41,512 nucleotides of DNA from Candidatus Zixiibacteriota bacterium. GTDB taxonomy: Bacteria; Zixibacteria; MSB-5A5; GN15; PGXB01. Location: NCBI GenBank assembly GCA_026397505.1, contig JAPLUR010000112.1, positions 1 through 41,512 on the forward strand, in the 5' to 3' direction. Positions 7,719 through 30,008 of this stretch are shown here, in pieces. The notes beneath the pieces were generated by a model. That model did not search any database. It was not told the origin of the DNA and worked only from the letters and a program-made list of their open reading frames with translations. Every line of letters starts with the position of its first letter. Position 1 is the first letter of the stretch. The translations under genes were made by a program, and so were the position numbers.

Positions 7719-8390
7719 TTAAAGCTGCGGGGCCTGACTGCGTTCGTCACGCTGCAACTTTTTGTACAGCCACAACGGATATATCAGCCCGCAATACAGA
7801 ACCGCCGGACCGAATGTCGCTCCGAGTGCAATGGCCGGATTTACCTTGAACACCGATAGCAGCACCGCTAAAATCCCCGATATGACAAACAGCCAACCGC
7901 CCAGAATATGGGTCCTGCGCCAGACTTCCTCCGAGGCCAGAGTCCAGGGGTTGCGAATCCCAAAAAAGAAATTGCGCGGCAGTTTGGGGAGATAATTCCC
8001 CATGAAGATAAAGAGCAGTCCCAGGGCAATTCCCAGAAGATACGGTTCCAGCTTGCCGTGACGCGCGGCATAGATAATGATTATGTACATGATAAAGAAA
8101 AAGACCAGCGCCATGTCGCGGAATATCAAAAAGATATGGTACTTAGATTGTATCTTTTTCCAGAAAGGGTCTATCATAGGAATGAAAGTAAGCAGTAAAT
8201 ACAAACCGATCGACATACCCAGATAGAGCGCGATGAAAGTTCCTTTCGAGGAATACTGGTCAACTTTGCCGTGGAAATCAAAATGCGACGGCACCTGCGC
8301 GGGGAGCGATGAATAGAAATAGAGCGACAATATCACGAACAGAGCGATTATCGCAAAAGGAAATATCTCTCTTTTAAGATTCCATTTCAT
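7719..8390 (-). CDS. SdpI-like membrane protein (DUF1648 + SdpI domains)
   Basis: This 223-residue protein has about six hydrophobic segments. The first, after KREIFPFAIIALFVI, is followed by PAQVPSHFDFHGKVDQYSSK, typical of DUF1648. The second half has the SdpI-family segment MGNYLPKLPRNFFFGIRNPWTL, then WRRTHILGGWLF. In Bacillus subtilis SdpI is the immunity protein against the SdpC toxin and a signal-transducing partner of SdpR. Here no sdpC-like toxin is nearby, so the role may be general envelope stress or resistance. GAGG lies just before the ATG. The gene starts two bases after the stop of the ArsR-type regulator, so the two form a small leftward operon. Confidence 0.82.
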   Translation of the reverse strand: MKWNLKREIFPFAIIALFVILSLYFYSSLPAQVPSHFDFHGKVDQYSSKGTFIALYLGMSIGLYLLLTFIPMIDPFWKKIQSKYHIFLIFRDMALVFFFIMYIIIIYAARHGKLEPYLLGIALGLLFIFMGNYLPKLPRNFFFGIRNPWTLASEEVWRRTHILGGWLFVISGILAVLLSVFKVNPAIALGATFGPAVLYCGLIYPLWLYKKLQRDERSQAPQL

Positions 8391-8392
8391 AA

Positions 8393-8665
8393 TTACCTCT
8401 TTTTGCCGGTGAATTTGGTCATATATTCGAGGGCGGTTTCAAAAATGCTCATATTTATCGAATAGCGGATAAACTGCCCCTCTCGCTCGGAGTCCACCAG
8501 TCCGGCCCGTTTGAGAATATCGAGATGGTGCGAGAGAGTCGGCTGCGAGACCGCAATCTTTTCCAGAATCTCCGTGGGGGTCAAATCCCGCTCCCGCAGA
8601 AGCTGGATGATTTGCCGCCGGGTCGGATCGCCCAGAGCTTTGAAAAATTCATTCAATGGTTTCAT
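8393..8665 (-). CDS. ArsR/SmtB-family transcriptional regulator, SdpR-like
   Basis: This is a 90-residue winged-helix repressor. FFKALGDPTRRQIIQLLRE is the classic ArsR N-terminal helix, SQPTLSHHLDILKRAGLV the recognition helix, and SEREGQFIRYSIN the wing. It lacks the cysteine metal box (CVC) of metal-sensing ArsR members, which fits SdpR-type autorepressors whose ligand is a membrane partner rather than a metal. It precedes the SdpI-like gene in the same operon, matching the sdpRI arrangement. Confidence 0.85.
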   Translation of the reverse strand: MKPLNEFFKALGDPTRRQIIQLLRERDLTPTEILEKIAVSQPTLSHHLDILKRAGLVDSEREGQFIRYSINMSIFETALEYMTKFTGKKR

Positions 8666-8700
8666 AATTGTATATATCTACATATGTCTACTTATCAATA
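8666..8700 (-). promoter_or_regulatory. AT-rich presumed operator/promoter of the sdpRI-like pair
   Basis: Immediately upstream of the regulator start lies an AT-rich stretch containing the palindrome ACATATGT (8680-8687) and a TCTAC direct repeat 10 bp apart flanking it. The position suits an autoregulatory ArsR site. No precise boxes can be assigned. Confidence 0.35.
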
Positions 8701-8833
8701 TATAGAAAGGTTTCGGCCTGTCAAGGGATTTCTTTATTTTTTTTTCGACCAAACAGCCGGGGACGCCATAAGAGTGATTCCTCATCCGGATAGAAGAGAT
8801 ATTTTATCTGCTATCTTTGTGCTATTATTTATG

Positions 8834-8863
8834 TTGACGTCTGTTTTCCCGGAAATGTATATT
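8834..8863 (+). promoter_or_regulatory. Candidate promoter for the CsgG/OmpA-domain gene
   Basis: TTGACG (8834-8839) and TATATT (8858-8863) are separated by 18 nt, giving a leader of about 55 nt before the ATG at 8926. That ATG has a strong AAAGGAG ribosome site. Confidence 0.5.
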
Positions 8864-8925
8864 CCCTTGACGAAACTGAGGATTATTTTTTCGGAAAAGT
8901 CACAATAAAATCAAAGGAGACTGCC

Positions 8926-10722
8926 ATGTTTAAGGCTCTACTTGTCCGTGCAGCAATTATGGCTGTGGCGATGACAATTCTCTTTGCGCTTCTGGCCGGC
9001 GCCGGAGTCAAAGAGAAAGTAACCTATCAGGGCAATAAGGCCCGGATAGCGGTCGGGACAATCAAAAACAAGTCCGCCGACTGTGATGATGAAATGGCCG
9101 CCTCGATAGGCGAGATGCTTTCCACCGCGCTGGCCAATAACGAGAAATTTATCGTTCTGGCCAGCAAGGAAGAGGTCGAGGAACTGGCCGAGGAAATCGA
9201 TCTGGGCGAATCGGAATATGTGGAGGAGGGACGCGGGGCGGAAAAAGGTTTGATGGAAGGGGCGGATGTTCTGGTAACCGGCTCGGTTACCGGATTTGAA
9301 CCCGAAGCCAGCGGCGGTGGCGGCGGTCTGGGAGCGCTCAAAAAAAAGGCTTTCGGCAAGGTGGGGCTGCAGAGCAAGAGCGCCAAAATATTGATAGATA
9401 TCAAGCTGATTGATATTCGTACCCGGCGGGTTATCAAGGCGATGTCGCTTGAGGGTGAATCGACCAGCTGGGGCGCCGATGTGGCCGGCGGCGGCTTGGT
9501 TGAGGATGTCGCTCTGGTCGGCGGGCTGGGGTCTTATTCCAACCAGCCGATGGAAAAAGCTATTCGTGATGTGCTGGCCAAAGCGGCCAACAAGATCGGC
9601 AAAGATGTCCCCGAGGAGTACTATCGTTACACCGGGCAGGGGCAATACACCCAGCAGTACGGCGAGAGCGGCGCCAAACAGGCGGCCGGGAAGACCGGCG
9701 GTGAAGAAGGAACAACCGGTGGCAAAGCCGCCGCAGGCAGTGAAGGTACCGGTGCGGTCAGAACCGAAAACATGAAGCTTTTCACCAAGTATGATTTTAT
9801 TCCCGGAGATCAGGTTATATTCTATGATGATTTCTCCGGCGAAGAGGTTGGCGAGTTCCCCTCGAAATGGTCGCTTGATGAAGGCGTTTTCGAAATTGCC
9901 GCGAAAGGGGATCGGAAATGGGTCATGTGCACCGACCAGGGTTCAATCCGCCCGAAAATGAAAACCACTCTTCCTTCCAGATTTACCGTCGAGCTTGATA
10001 TATACAGCAACGGCGCCGACCAGTCGGGGCATTACTATTATATTTATATCCTTGATGCCAACGAAAAGAGAATTGCGGAATTCAATGTAACCAGCGGAAA
10101 AAGCACAAGTGTCTCCATTTATGGGAAGGAGATTTCTGCCAAAGAACTTACCTCCAAATTGGGCAAAGGGGCGCATACCATGAGGATCATGGCGACCCCA
10201 AGCACCATGAAATGCTATGTCGATAACGAACGAGTGGCCAATGTCCCGGAAATTGAGGGATTCCAGCCGGCGATGCTTCAAGTTTATTGCGACCCATGGA
10301 AAGAGCAGGGGAATCCGATGCTGATGGGGACGCTGCGGGTGGCCGAGGGGGGCAAGTCGATGCGCCAGCAGCTCGATGAAACCGGCAAGATCGTCACCCA
10401 CGGGATTTTGTTTGATTCCGGCTCCGATGTAATTAAAGGCGAGTCATACAAAACTCTCGCCGAAATCGGGCAGCTTATGACCGATGACCCGGCCTTGAAA
10501 CTTTCTATCGAAGGGCACACCGATAGCGATGGGGAAGAGGCATACAACCTGGATTTGAGCCAGCGCCGGGCCGCCTCGGTGAAAGCATATCTGGTGAGTA
10601 GCTACCAGATTGACGGATCGCGTCTGGAAACCAAGGGATTCGGCGAGAGCAAGCCGATTGATGCCAACACTACGGCTGAAGGGAAAGCCAATAACCGCCG
10701 CGTCGAACTGGTGAAATTATAG
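8926..10722 (+). CDS. Exported CsgG-like / beta-sandwich / OmpA-like three-domain protein
   Basis: This 598-residue envelope protein begins with a hydrophobic export signal (about residues 5-27). Residues ~35-235 resemble the CsgG/FlgO-type periplasmic domain: RIAVGTIKNKSADCDDEMAA, a STALANNEKFIVLAS segment, and ILIDIKLIDIRTRRVIKA. A Gly/Thr/Ala-rich linker (~240-282) leads to a domain with VIFYDDFSGEEVGEFPSKW and LDIYSNGADQSGHYYYIYI, typical of LamG/DUF1080-like beta-sandwiches. The last ~110 residues are an OmpA peptidoglycan-binding domain (ILFDSGSDVIKGESYKTL, IEGHTDSDGEEAYNLDLSQRRA, KGFGESKP, NNRRVELVKL). It is probably anchored to peptidoglycan in the periplasm. The specific role is unknown. 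Confidence 0.85.
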   Translation: MFKALLVRAAIMAVAMTILFALLAGAGVKEKVTYQGNKARIAVGTIKNKSADCDDEMAASIGEMLSTALANNEKFIVLASKEEVEELAEEIDLGESEYVEEGRGAEKGLMEGADVLVTGSVTGFEPEASGGGGGLGALKKKAFGKVGLQSKSAKILIDIKLIDIRTRRVIKAMSLEGESTSWGADVAGGGLVEDVALVGGLGSYSNQPMEKAIRDVLAKAANKIGKDVPEEYYRYTGQGQYTQQYGESGAKQAAGKTGGEEGTTGGKAAAGSEGTGAVRTENMKLFTKYDFIPGDQVIFYDDFSGEEVGEFPSKWSLDEGVFEIAAKGDRKWVMCTDQGSIRPKMKTTLPSRFTVELDIYSNGADQSGHYYYIYILDANEKRIAEFNVTSGKSTSVSIYGKEISAKELTSKLGKGAHTMRIMATPSTMKCYVDNERVANVPEIEGFQPAMLQVYCDPWKEQGNPMLMGTLRVAEGGKSMRQQLDETGKIVTHGILFDSGSDVIKGESYKTLAEIGQLMTDDPALKLSIEGHTDSDGEEAYNLDLSQRRAASVKAYLVSSYQIDGSRLETKGFGESKPIDANTTAEGKANNRRVELVKL

Positions 10723-22683: not shown

Positions 22684-23307
22684 TTGTCGAAGGCCAAGCG
22701 CTTGGGTACACCGGAACCAAATATGAGCAATAAAAGGGATTGGGTAAAATATCTACTTGATAGAATAAGGCAAAATAAGTTGCTGGCGATAATAATAGTG
22801 AGCGGGATAATCATCATGGCGGTCGCCTCCTTGAAGTCAAGTATACTGAGCATATTAACATCTTCGAATGTGGCCCGAAATGCCGACAGCAAGAAACCAA
22901 TGGACAGTGCTTTATGGATTACAGATCAAAAAACGTCTCGATCATTTCGCCTTACCAACTGCAATTTCAGCGAATTGCGACAGGCTATCATAGAGACATG
23001 CGGTCTTACATACGACCCTTCATCCGATGCTACATATGATATATCATTTGGTCAGACGGGTGAGATATATCCAGCCGACAATAGTCAAATGTATCTATAT
23101 AACGGCGGTTCCATAACCATCATGATCGATGGTTCAGAATGTACGTGCTTAGACCAATTGAAACTTATGCCTTGGCATGATTATCCAGGAAATCCAAGGA
23201 ATATATTGGAGAATAGGATTAATGCCCAAATGCAAGAACTCATTAGAACCAATCAAGATGCCATTATTGCTGCAATGGAATCCTGTGTACCTCGCTATGA
23301 CAAATAA
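22684..23307 (+). CDS. Single-span membrane protein of unknown function
   Basis: From TTG 22684 this gives 207 residues; ATG 22723 would give 194 and is equally possible. A basic N-terminus (KRDWVKYLLDRIRQNK) precedes one membrane helix (LLAIIIVSGIIIMAVASL), so the rest is probably outside the cytoplasm. The soluble part has four cysteines, including SECTCLDQL, and a YDISFGQTGEIYPADN segment. I do not recognise a family. The stop overlaps the best start of the next gene by 11 nt. The two genes are likely coupled and form a unit. AGA, ATA and AAT codons are frequent, unlike the neighbouring rarA. Confidence 0.6.
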   Translation: MSKAKRLGTPEPNMSNKRDWVKYLLDRIRQNKLLAIIIVSGIIIMAVASLKSSILSILTSSNVARNADSKKPMDSALWITDQKTSRSFRLTNCNFSELRQAIIETCGLTYDPSSDATYDISFGQTGEIYPADNSQMYLYNGGSITIMIDGSECTCLDQLKLMPWHDYPGNPRNILENRINAQMQELIRTNQDAIIAAMESCVPRYDK

Positions 23308-25072
23308 TACTGGGAAACGAATAATTCTAATATTTACGATTATCATTATATCCACAGGATATATTCGCGCTGATAATCAGCGATTATTGCTATATGCCAA
23401 TGATGTTACTTTCTTGCCACAGATTGAGGATATCCTTTCCAGATTACGTAACCGCGACAACAATAATCGGCTGTTTTCAGAAATCGTAAATCTCAACAAA
23501 TGGTCGATTAATAGATATGATGTAAACCAATTAGAAAATCTTATTAGACTTTATGAGTCGCCCGGTATGCTCAGAAGAAAAAGCGACTTGTCTGTCAAAG
23601 AAGACAGTGCAACTGCTACACTAATTAGACAATGCACTAGTTACATCAGAATTGACGTACTTACCAAGCTACCACTAATTGAGTTTCAGCTTATTGTCAG
23701 CGATTCACTCCCCCCAACTAAGAGCCTTAACGAATACCCCACCATTATTAATGCCTCAAGTAGATATGTGGGCTTTATTGTGGATATTTCGCGAGGTGAA
23801 ATATCCACGCAATTGGAAAATAGTCTAAAAAGGATATTTCCTATAAGCAACCATCCTCCAAACTATATTGTTAAATCAAATAATCCAATGCGCTCCAATA
23901 ATACGTTTTATATAATACGCGGACAAAGGGTATTCTTAGATGCATCGCAATCCTATGATTATGATACGCCGTGGGCATCGCTATCTTACAAGTGGCGGCA
24001 GTTAAACCCAGCAGGTACTAATTTGCCATTAGACCCCGAGGAGATAGTAACTATTGAACAAACAGGTAAGAGAATTGAATTCGTTCCTCGTAATTCGGAT
24101 GCATACTGTTTTGCATTGACAATTACTGATGGTATAGCCAGCAGCAAAGAAGTACTATATCATGTCCTGGTTGTACCGCCCCCCGCTACTTTTGCAGTTA
24201 AGGTATTGAATGTCAAGGGAACTAGCCTATTATTTAATAAACCCGAAATAAGAATCCCATTCGCTATATACAGCAAGCCAGATTGTGATGTCTCCGTGAA
24301 AATAGCCGATGTCCATGCACGGCCGGGCAGGCCTTTGGGGCCGGTCGAGCAAATGCTTTTCTCCACTATTCAATGGGAGTCTATCTTTCATATTAAATTC
24401 TTGCAACTTCGACTGCAATCGGACACTATCCAATTGGTAGGTTTCCGTGGTAGTTTGTTCAATCCATTTGCACCACCTAAAGCGATATTTAGGCCCTCGC
24501 CGGAAGGAAAATTTATTATCCGGCAATATGCTGTTACATCTGACCTTTCAGTTATTCCGTTTATTGGTGACTACGACATTGGGATATTGGCATATAACGA
24601 TAGTATCAGCACTGACACATGCTTCTTCAGTATCCGCATTAAAATAGTCTCCCCTCTGATGCTCGGATATCAAATTGGCGTCCTTCGCATTCCGTCTCAC
24701 AATGAATCAAATAGCGCATTGTTCTATGGTGGTTATATGGGCGTTGAATATGCACTTAGAGATAAGCTAAGGCTGGAAATTGGATTAAATGTGAATACAA
24801 TAAACTGGTCTGCTCCGAAAGTGTCTTGGACAGAGCAGTATAGGCAATTTGGATTCATTGGGCTAGGTTATGATTGGTTCTCCGCTGCAATTCTCTTGAA
24901 CACACTTCCAGGACCTCACGGTTATGACATCGGGATTAAATTTGGATCAGTTTTGCATGGGCGTGTACCGCTGGTCATGCATTTCTCCTATTTCCCCTCC
25001 AGAGATGCATACTTTATCTCATTGGCATTTGATTTTCGAGATTTATTCTCCTTAAGTTATATTCCTGGTTGA
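23297..25072 (+). CDS. Exported protein with PKD/REJ-like domain and barrel-like C-terminus
   Basis: ATG 23297 gives 591 residues with signal peptide IILIFTIIIISTGYIRA. An upstream in-frame start at 23177 would lie deep in the preceding gene. The first ~200 residues are unrecognised. Near the middle, IIRGQRVFLDASQSYDYDTPWASLSYKW followed by ITDGIASSKEVLYHVLVV is the PKD-type pattern. The last ~150 residues (MLGYQIGVLRI, GYMGVEYALRDKLRLEIGLNV, FGFIGLGYDWFSAAILL, YFISLAFDFRDLF) have alternating aromatic and glycine-rich strands like a small outer-membrane barrel. The protein may bridge inner-membrane partner and outer membrane. AT-rich codon use suggests acquisition by transfer. Confidence 0.58.
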   Translation: MTNNTGKRIILIFTIIIISTGYIRADNQRLLLYANDVTFLPQIEDILSRLRNRDNNNRLFSEIVNLNKWSINRYDVNQLENLIRLYESPGMLRRKSDLSVKEDSATATLIRQCTSYIRIDVLTKLPLIEFQLIVSDSLPPTKSLNEYPTIINASSRYVGFIVDISRGEISTQLENSLKRIFPISNHPPNYIVKSNNPMRSNNTFYIIRGQRVFLDASQSYDYDTPWASLSYKWRQLNPAGTNLPLDPEEIVTIEQTGKRIEFVPRNSDAYCFALTITDGIASSKEVLYHVLVVPPPATFAVKVLNVKGTSLLFNKPEIRIPFAIYSKPDCDVSVKIADVHARPGRPLGPVEQMLFSTIQWESIFHIKFLQLRLQSDTIQLVGFRGSLFNPFAPPKAIFRPSPEGKFIIRQYAVTSDLSVIPFIGDYDIGILAYNDSISTDTCFFSIRIKIVSPLMLGYQIGVLRIPSHNESNSALFYGGYMGVEYALRDKLRLEIGLNVNTINWSAPKVSWTEQYRQFGFIGLGYDWFSAAILLNTLPGPHGYDIGIKFGSVLHGRVPLVMHFSYFPSRDAYFISLAFDFRDLFSLSYIPG

Positions 25073-28374: not shown

Positions 28375-28431
28375 TTGACTGCCGCAATATATTATAATAT
28401 ATTGACATTGGATTTCTATTACCAAAAGGAG
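28375..28431 (+). promoter_or_regulatory. Candidate promoter and ribosome site of the membrane protein/hydrolase pair
   Basis: TTGACT (28375-28380) and TATATT (28398-28403) are spaced by 17 nt. A strong AAAGGAG at 28425-28431 stands 9 nt before ATG 28441 and decides that start over any earlier one. Confidence 0.55.
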
Positions 28432-28440
28432 ATTATCGCA

Positions 28441-29139
28441 ATGAACGATGCTAAGATTCTGAATCTGGTTTTGCCTTATGCCATAAATGCTTGTGCGATC
28501 GGCGTGATCGTCATGGCAATAATTCAGCTCTTCAAGGTGTCAGTCCGAAGCATATTTCATAGTTTTTCGGTGCATAAGTGGTTGCATGGCGGGGGCCTGT
28601 GCAATAGGAATAATATCGAAGGCCCGCGTAATTGCCATATTTTTGATAACTTGATATCACTTTCAACGTCGGGAAATGCAAAATCCCTATTTAAGTTGCC
28701 ATTGGAGCAATTATGCGGGCAGATAGCCACAGCGGCACAGGTGGCGCTCAGTTATCCGGATAAAAATGAAGAATTGCTTTTCGCATTTGTAGGATCAGAT
28801 GAACAGAGCAAGGCAAGTGTGGAAAAATATATAGAACTGAAAAAGAGCCCCTTGTCTACAGAGGGGAATCAAGATGCTTTAATTGAAAGTCGAAACAGGG
28901 TTGGCCATGCTATTCAGAGGAATATTGATTCCCTTCAGGTTTCTGTTGGATATAGGTGGCGATTTTATTTGAAATTGGCGGCCATAGTCTTGAGTGCTCT
29001 GCTGATGAGCAGATTTTCCATATTTAAGAGTGAAGATGTTGGATTCTACATTATATATTTTGCGACGGCGATATTCGCGGGATATGCCGCTTCTATTGCA
29101 CGCGATATTGTGGCAGCCGTGGAAAGGGTACGCAGATGA
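28441..29139 (+). CDS. Membrane protein of unknown function, partner of alpha/beta hydrolase
   Basis: The 232-residue protein has an N-terminal helix (VLPYAINACAIGVIVMAIIQLF) and two C-terminal helices (LKLAAIVLSALLMSRFSIF and GFYIIYFATAIFAGYAASIA). The middle ~130 residues are probably cytoplasmic if both ends are arranged as the positive residues suggest. They include LEQLCGQIATAAQVALSYPDKNEELL and RVGHAIQRNIDSLQVSVGYRWRFYL. I do not recognise a named family. The next gene overlaps by the four bases ATGA, so they form a coupled pair. The AT-rich codon use differs from the symporter upstream. It may anchor or inhibit the hydrolase. Confidence 0.6.
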   Translation: MNDAKILNLVLPYAINACAIGVIVMAIIQLFKVSVRSIFHSFSVHKWLHGGGLCNRNNIEGPRNCHIFDNLISLSTSGNAKSLFKLPLEQLCGQIATAAQVALSYPDKNEELLFAFVGSDEQSKASVEKYIELKKSPLSTEGNQDALIESRNRVGHAIQRNIDSLQVSVGYRWRFYLKLAAIVLSALLMSRFSIFKSEDVGFYIIYFATAIFAGYAASIARDIVAAVERVRR

Positions 29140-30008
29140 TGGATTCGGAGTCGGAGTTGCGCTGCAATGAGATATCTGTAAGGAAAGACGAACATAGTTC
29201 AGAATTGGCCGACAGTGTTCAGCCATTCGGGAATCAGAAGTTCATTATGAATAGAATGATTATTCTGATCCACGGATATAATGTATCTCAGAAAAAAGCG
29301 ACTGATTCCTATTCTGCATTTGTTACTCAATTGAAGAAAACCAATAATTCGACGAACTTACTGAACTCGATCTGGAAATTTCACTGGCCAGGAAACCACA
29401 ACAATAGGGTCCTTTCATTATTCAGTTATCCTTTGCAGATAGACAAAGCGAAAAAGGCTGCTACCTTGCTCTCAAAATATCTGAGAAATAATGTCGCGGG
29501 CGGACAGGAAATTGTTTTTGTGGCGCATTCGCTGGGTTGCCGCCTTGTCTTCGAAACGGTCGGTGAGCTCATAAAAGCGGGTCATCTTAAACTTGCCTTT
29601 AATGCGAAACTGTGTCTTATGGGTGCTGCCGTGCCAGTCTATATGCTCCTTCCGCCAGATAGCCCCTTCATGCCGGTGATAGTAAATACAGGGCGTCAGG
29701 CTGTGTTCTATTCTACAAATGACACTACACTCCGATGGTTTTTTCCATCCGGTCAGACAGTGGCGCGCGAAGGTTTTTTCCCAGTTGCAATTGGACTTGA
29801 AGGCGGGCCACAAGGAGTCTGGAAAGGGCAGAGTGAAAACACCTGGCTTAGACATTCCGAATATTGGGGAAACGAAGATATTTGGCAAAGTTTCAAATTA
29901 TTTCTTGGTGATCAGAAATTTCGTAAATTCCCTGAACGAAGAAATGACGAATGGGAATTGCAGCCTCCCAATGTAATTAATTCATACTGCGGTACAATAT
30001 CCTTATAA
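29136..30008 (+). CDS. Serine alpha/beta hydrolase (DUF900/DUF726-like)
   Basis: The 290-residue protein has the oxyanion-type motif MIILIHGYNVSQ, the nucleophile elbow VAHSLGCRLV, a probable catalytic Asp in FYSTNDTTLRW and a probable catalytic His in WLRHSEYWGN. Such a triad with H-S-x-YW occurs in DUF900/DUF726-type hydrolases. There is no signal peptide, so it acts in the cytoplasm or at the inner-membrane face beside its coupled membrane partner. Lipase, esterase or another acyl-hydrolase activity is plausible. The first ~35 residues may be dispensable; other ATGs lie at 29139, 29247 and 29256. Confidence 0.75.
   Translation: MMDSESELRCNEISVRKDEHSSELADSVQPFGNQKFIMNRMIILIHGYNVSQKKATDSYSAFVTQLKKTNNSTNLLNSIWKFHWPGNHNNRVLSLFSYPLQIDKAKKAATLLSKYLRNNVAGGQEIVFVAHSLGCRLVFETVGELIKAGHLKLAFNAKLCLMGAAVPVYMLLPPDSPFMPVIVNTGRQAVFYSTNDTTLRWFFPSGQTVAREGFFPVAIGLEGGPQGVWKGQSENTWLRHSEYWGNEDIWQSFKLFLGDQKFRKFPERRNDEWELQPPNVINSYCGTISL

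What the first reader, a model, noticed from the sequence alone, without database searches (positions are those of the whole stretch)
28441..30008. Coupled membrane protein and serine hydrolase: candidate effector or defence pair
The ATGA overlap, own promoter, strong ribosome site and AT-rich composition mark a compact cassette. The hydrolase triad (Ser in AHSLG, Asp in STNDTTL, His in LRHSEYW) is intact and has no export signal. A membrane partner could hold it inactive or guide it to lipids, as in toxin-immunity or abortive infection pairs.
Basis: inference. Interest (0 to 1): 0.6.

Follow-up and report, generated by a model that had tools for sequence, protein, structure and literature searches.

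The report
Mobile membrane-protein plus lipase-like gene pair
Two neighbouring genes, one for a membrane protein and one for a lipase-like enzyme, travel together as a unit between distant bacteria and in at least one bacterial virus, which makes them a candidate, still untested, for a new kind of anti-virus or rival-virus exclusion system.

Summary
In detail: two overlapping genes (28441-29139, 232 aa, predicted three membrane helices; 29136-30008, 290 aa, alpha/beta hydrolase of Pfam DUF900, intact Ser132/Asp196/His240 triad, no export signal). I found the same two genes, same order, abutting or overlapping, in 14 further places: an Ignavibacteriales genome, two genomes of its phylum, rhizobia and other Alphaproteobacteria (one on a plasmid typed conjugative), and a bacteriophage contig. 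All 8 places newly found by the membrane gene alone carry the hydrolase next door. The two gene trees match (r=0.97). Within the window's own phylum the pair is in 1 of 132 genomes. In the phage it is an AT-rich insert between tail genes, and two TIR-domain genes follow the tail module. The membrane family matches no Pfam, NCBIfam, PHROG or PADLOC model and no solved fold; DUF900 has no known function. Best reading: a mobile accessory cassette in which a membrane protein tethers and controls a cytosolic lipase-like enzyme, most likely for phage defence or exclusion. The unit, its mobility and its active site are well supported; the defence role rests on context and is untested.

The parts
28375..28403 (+). 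promoter-like site TTGACT-17-TATATT upstream of the pair
   Evidence: consensus match only
28424..28431 (+). ribosome-binding site AAAAGGAG, 9 nt before the start codon
   Evidence: read directly
28441..29139 (+). membrane protein, 232 aa: predicted N-out TM1, helical cytosolic domain, C-terminal two-helix hairpin, cytosolic C-terminus; no known family
28468..28524 (+). TM1, residues 10-28
   Evidence: hydropathy
28975..29025 (+). TM2, residues 179-195
29050..29100 (+). TM3, residues 204-220, followed by the conserved SIARD motif (R/K-D)
29136..29139 (+). ATGA overlap, stop of gene 1 and start of gene 2
29136..30008 (+). alpha/beta hydrolase, 290 aa, DUF900 (PF05990, 30.9 bits, cut-off 20.5), no export signal
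29271..29282 (+). HGYN motif (residues 46-49); H46, G47 and N49 invariant in 12/12; likely oxyanion region
29529..29531 (+). catalytic Ser132 codon (AHSLG)
   Evidence: invariant 12/12
29721..29723 (+). catalytic Asp196 codon
   Evidence: invariant 12/12
29853..29855 (+). catalytic His240 codon
   Evidence: invariant 12/12

Best explanation
The two genes form a self-contained, horizontally moving cassette. The first protein sits in the inner membrane (predicted N-terminus out, about 140 aa of helical domain in the cytosol, C-terminal hairpin). It recruits the second protein, a cytosolic lipase/esterase-like serine hydrolase, to the cytosolic face of the membrane and keeps it in check. On a trigger, probably phage infection or membrane disturbance sensed by the membrane protein, the hydrolase is released or activated and attacks membrane lipids or another acyl ester, stopping the infected cell or blocking an incoming phage (abortive infection or exclusion). 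Shown by sequence: the unit, its conservation, intact triad, mobility, phage carriage. Inferred: topology, tethering, lipid substrate, trigger and defence role.
For: Same pair in 15 loci from distant bacterial groups and a phage. All 8 loci newly found with the membrane gene alone have the hydrolase directly downstream. Gaps about -4 to +24 nt. Gene trees agree: r=0.973, Mantel p=1e-4. Triad invariant 12/12. The pair is sporadic: 1/132 in its own phylum, 7/395 in a rhizobial family sample, 4/385 in that class. The Ignavibacteriales pair groups with the window and phage copies, not with the two pairs from its own phylum, pointing to transfer. Phage contig: cassette of 54% GC in 63% GC surroundings, between tape-measure/tail genes, with a TIR_2 gene and a TIR-TPR gene after the tail module. 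Hydrolase fold hits include thioesterases, phospholipase PlaB and monoglyceride lipases.
Against: No PADLOC, PHROG or NCBIfam match. In the bacterial genomes the cassette mostly stands alone among housekeeping genes, not in defence islands. Only one phage copy was found; no match in 50,697 GenBank phages. Substrate, toxicity and interaction are untested. Homology of the two membrane-protein subfamilies rests on collinearity and a modest profile match (E=3.9e-4 for one comparison, hhalign probability 35%). The hydrolase model is only moderately confident (pLDDT 64).
Confidence: 0.48

Rival explanations
1. A membrane-tethered lipase or thioesterase for ordinary lipid turnover or stress repair: the membrane protein anchors a housekeeping-type enzyme that happens to move horizontally.
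For: DUF900 is a broad family with many partnerless members; fold neighbours include thioesterases and monoglyceride lipases; bacterial copies sit among housekeeping genes.
Against: Sporadic distribution, no shared neighbours, and a copy inside a phage tail module.
Confidence: 0.27
2. Toxin-immunity pair: the hydrolase is toxic inside the cell and the membrane protein neutralises it, acting as an addiction module or inter-bacterial effector with immunity.
For: Tight translational coupling and co-evolution; two-gene mobile units fit addiction modules.
Against: No export signal on the hydrolase and no secretion-system, VgrG, PAAR or Rhs-type gene seen beside the loci inspected.
Confidence: 0.15
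3. A phage lysis or cell-envelope cassette taken up by bacteria: a holin-like membrane protein plus an esterase comparable to Lysin B.
For: Phage-borne copy; Lysin B proteins are among weak fold hits (E 8e-3).
Against: The hydrolase has no export signal; the membrane protein has a large cytosolic domain; in the phage it lies among tail genes with its own composition.
Confidence: 0.05
4. Chance neighbours or an artefact of gene prediction.
For: None found.
Against: 14 further loci with the same order and coupling; mirror-tree r=0.973.
Confidence: 0.01

Closest known systems
DUF900 alpha/beta hydrolases (PF05990)
   Same: Hydrolase passes the family cut-off in the window; all 12 members match it at E<0.01; same serine hydrolase core.
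   Different: The described rhizobial DUF900 protein has an N-terminal TM helix or lipoprotein signal, and the family's function is unknown (PMC11878206); the cassette enzymes lack it and have a separate membrane partner instead.
Hydrolase plus transmembrane protein system of P4 satellites (Rousset et al. 2022, PMC9122126; I take it to be the 'Hydrolase-3Tm' of later lists, from memory)
   Same: Two genes, hydrolase plus membrane protein, carried by phage-related elements; the authors suggest abortive infection.
   Different: Its hydrolase is HAD-like, a different fold and chemistry; no profile match to PADLOC models.
Lipase-type effectors of CBASS (CapV patatin phospholipases; general knowledge)
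   Same: Lipid-attacking enzyme as proposed executor.
   Different: Different fold, and no cyclic-nucleotide synthase gene recognised beside the cassette.
Type VI secretion lipase effectors (Tle) with immunity proteins (general knowledge)
   Same: Lipase-like enzyme next to a membrane-associated partner.
   Different: No secretion genes or export features seen here.

Membership tests
DUF900 (PF05990) | Profile score above the curated cut-off | tested here: met
   30.9 bits vs 20.5; all 12 homologues match at E<0.01
DUF900 (PF05990) | Ser-Asp-His triad of an alpha/beta hydrolase | tested here: met
   invariant 12/12
DUF900 (PF05990) | N-terminal membrane helix or lipoprotein signal, as reported for a rhizobial member (PMC11878206); not a strict criterion of the family | tested here: not met
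   no hydrophobic segment in any cassette hydrolase tested
DUF726 (PF05277) | Profile score above the curated cut-off over the family length | tested here: inconclusive
   26.5 vs 22.6 bits but only profile positions 192-292, and only 3 of 12 homologues match
P4-satellite hydrolase + TM system | HAD-like hydrolase | tested here: not met
   window enzyme is an alpha/beta hydrolase; system described in PMC9122126
P4-satellite hydrolase + TM system | Paired transmembrane protein | tested here: met
   three predicted TM helices; sequence relation not shown, no PADLOC match
Known anti-phage systems in PADLOC-DB 2.0 | Profile match of either protein | tested here: not met
   none at E<=1; none at 0.1 for three homologous pairs
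Anti-phage defence system (function) | Reduces phage propagation | not testable with these tools
   needs a plaque assay
Type VI lipase effector with immunity | Secretion-system delivery genes or export signal | tested here: not met
   none seen in the neighbourhoods inspected
Toxin-antitoxin module | One protein toxic alone, neutralised by the other | not testable with these tools
   needs expression

The most novel reading that the evidence does not exclude
An undescribed family of mobile immune cassettes, carried by bacteria and at least one phage, in which a three-helix membrane sensor of a new family tethers and triggers a cytosolic DUF900 lipase against the cell's own inner membrane; this would give DUF900 its first function.
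Probability: 0.35. Interest if true: 0.72.

Novelty: new variant of a known kind. Interest (0 to 1): 0.55.

Why it matters
The membrane family is not in any profile library searched, and DUF900 has no known function (PMC11878206). A conserved two-gene unit that moves between phyla and rides in a phage that also carries TIR genes gives a direct, small and cloneable test of both: two genes, one active-site mutation, a phage panel and a lipid assay. If it works as proposed, it adds a sensor-plus-lipase design to bacterial immunity that sits outside defence islands, where neighbourhood-based discovery cannot see it.

Tried and rejected
Empty-site test: the downstream ABC/MacB-like operon is conserved in relatives, but the upstream symporter is never beside it in the loci read, so no clean insertion boundary could be drawn. 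GenBank phages gave no match. Fold search of the membrane protein gave nothing below E=0.38; scattered bestrophin and TolQ hits (E 2-4) were treated as noise. Profile search of PDB sequences gave only generic lipases and chance hits. A DUF726 fusion idea (membrane part plus hydrolase in one chain) was dropped: the Haloarcula DUF726 protein carries an export-type N-terminus, not the partner, and human TMCO4 of DUF726 is reported to lack TM helices (PMC11878206). Many DUF900 hits in plasmids and in the Ignavibacteriales phylum are other, partnerless lineages. No Rfam element lies in the window. The Python one search failed on a file name and was repeated.

Full report
WHAT IS THERE. Gene 1 (28441-29139, 232 aa) and gene 2 (29136-30008, 290 aa) overlap in ATGA; AAAAGGAG precedes gene 1 by 9 nt. 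A promoter-like site lies at 28375-28403. Cassette GC is 43.3%, the window's 49.4%; 7.5% of equal tiles are as low. Gene 2 passes the DUF900 cut-off and weakly that of DUF726. Gene 1 matches nothing in Pfam, NCBIfam, PADLOC or PHROGs.

THE PAIR IS A UNIT. In the own phylum only this genome has it (1 of 132; 1 of 60 relatives for the hydrolase). A plasmid search led to a Sinorhizobium fredii plasmid, typed conjugative, with a 223-aa membrane protein directly before a 284-aa hydrolase. Genome searches gave an Ignavibacteriales genome (34% and 35-36% identity), two Rhizobium genomes, two more genomes of the Ignavibacteriales phylum, four further rhizobial genomes and three further genomes of the same class. 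A scan of viral contigs with the membrane protein gave a phage contig with the hydrolase next door. In all 15 loci the membrane gene comes first; where starts could be set, the gap is about -4 to +24 nt. Loci found with the membrane gene alone are the fair test: 8 of 8 new ones carry the hydrolase. Trees of the two proteins (12 pairs) are nearly identical (r=0.973, Mantel p=1e-4). Window, Ignavibacteriales and phage pairs form one branch; the two other pairs of the Ignavibacteriales phylum fall with the rhizobial side, which points to horizontal transfer. The two membrane subfamilies are far apart: profile comparison gave E=3.9e-4 (probability 35%) over the last 80 columns, so their homology is likely but not proven by sequence alone; same position, size, topology and the final R/K-D motif support it.

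ANATOMY. The membrane protein has one N-terminal helix, about 140 residues of helical domain and a C-terminal hairpin. Basic residues lie mostly after TM1, before TM2 and at the C-terminus, with 0-1 in the hairpin loop, so the domain and tail most likely face the cytosol. The AlphaFold2 model is all-helical, pLDDT 80.4, with no solved fold like it (best E 0.38). The hydrolase triad is invariant in 12 of 12; Ser132 sits between a predicted strand and helix as in a nucleophile elbow. The model is only moderate (pLDDT 64) but hits thioesterases, phospholipase PlaB and monoglyceride lipases. No cassette hydrolase has an export signal, unlike the DUF900 protein described in PMC11878206, whose authors state that the function of the family is unknown.

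CONTEXT. Bacterial copies sit among unrelated, mostly housekeeping genes that differ from genome to genome, except for close relatives such as R. deserti and L053. Flanking genes of the window do not give a clean empty site. The phage contig has a head maturation protease, a minor tail protein, a tape-measure gene, then the cassette, then more tail genes. Cassette GC is 54% against 63% around it. After the tail module come a TIR_2 protein and a TIR-TPR protein. This is the layout of accessory 'moron' cargo, and TIR genes are common in anti-phage systems (general knowledge; both match PADLOC TIR models).

INTERPRETATION. Shown: a conserved, co-inherited, mobile two-gene unit with an intact hydrolase. 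Inferred: tethering of a cytosolic lipase to the membrane, control by the membrane partner, and a role in phage defence or exclusion. The nearest functional parallel is the P4-satellite system of a HAD-like hydrolase with a membrane protein (PMC9122126), but the enzyme fold differs, so the window pair is not a member. Ordinary lipid turnover remains the main rival. The searches were pattern-limited and sampled, and the PADLOC copy dates from 2023, so frequency is a lower bound and the absence from known systems is provisional.

Noticed in passing
L092:7285-7953 and 7950-9740 (phage contig IMGVR_UViG_3300035696_001549): A TIR_2 protein and a TIR-TPR protein follow the tail module of the phage that carries the cassette, apparently a second piece of defence-like cargo.
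   Followed up: partly
window 22684-25072: AT-rich stretch (38-45% GC) with two overlapping unknown genes, a 207-aa protein with a hydrophobic N-terminal segment and a 631-aa protein with a weak PKD-like match.
   Followed up: no
L047, L048, L050, L051: A different DUF900-like hydrolase (283-289 aa) conserved inside what looks like an export operon (efflux-like protein, TetR-like regulator, two ABC ATPases, two ABC-2-like permeases) in four genomes.
   Followed up: no
L094:2134-3870: Sulfitobacter plasmid DUF900-like hydrolase with an export-type N-terminus, flanked by a caspase-family protein and a WD40 protein.
   Followed up: no
L013:3153-6301: Rhizobium plasmid DUF900-type hydrolase followed 11 nt on by a mechanosensitive ion channel gene.
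   Followed up: no
L004:2101-9711: In S. fredii the pair sits between a peptidoglycan-binding-domain gene and a hypothetical plus di-heme cytochrome c peroxidase gene, with an IS66 transposase gene close by.
   Followed up: no
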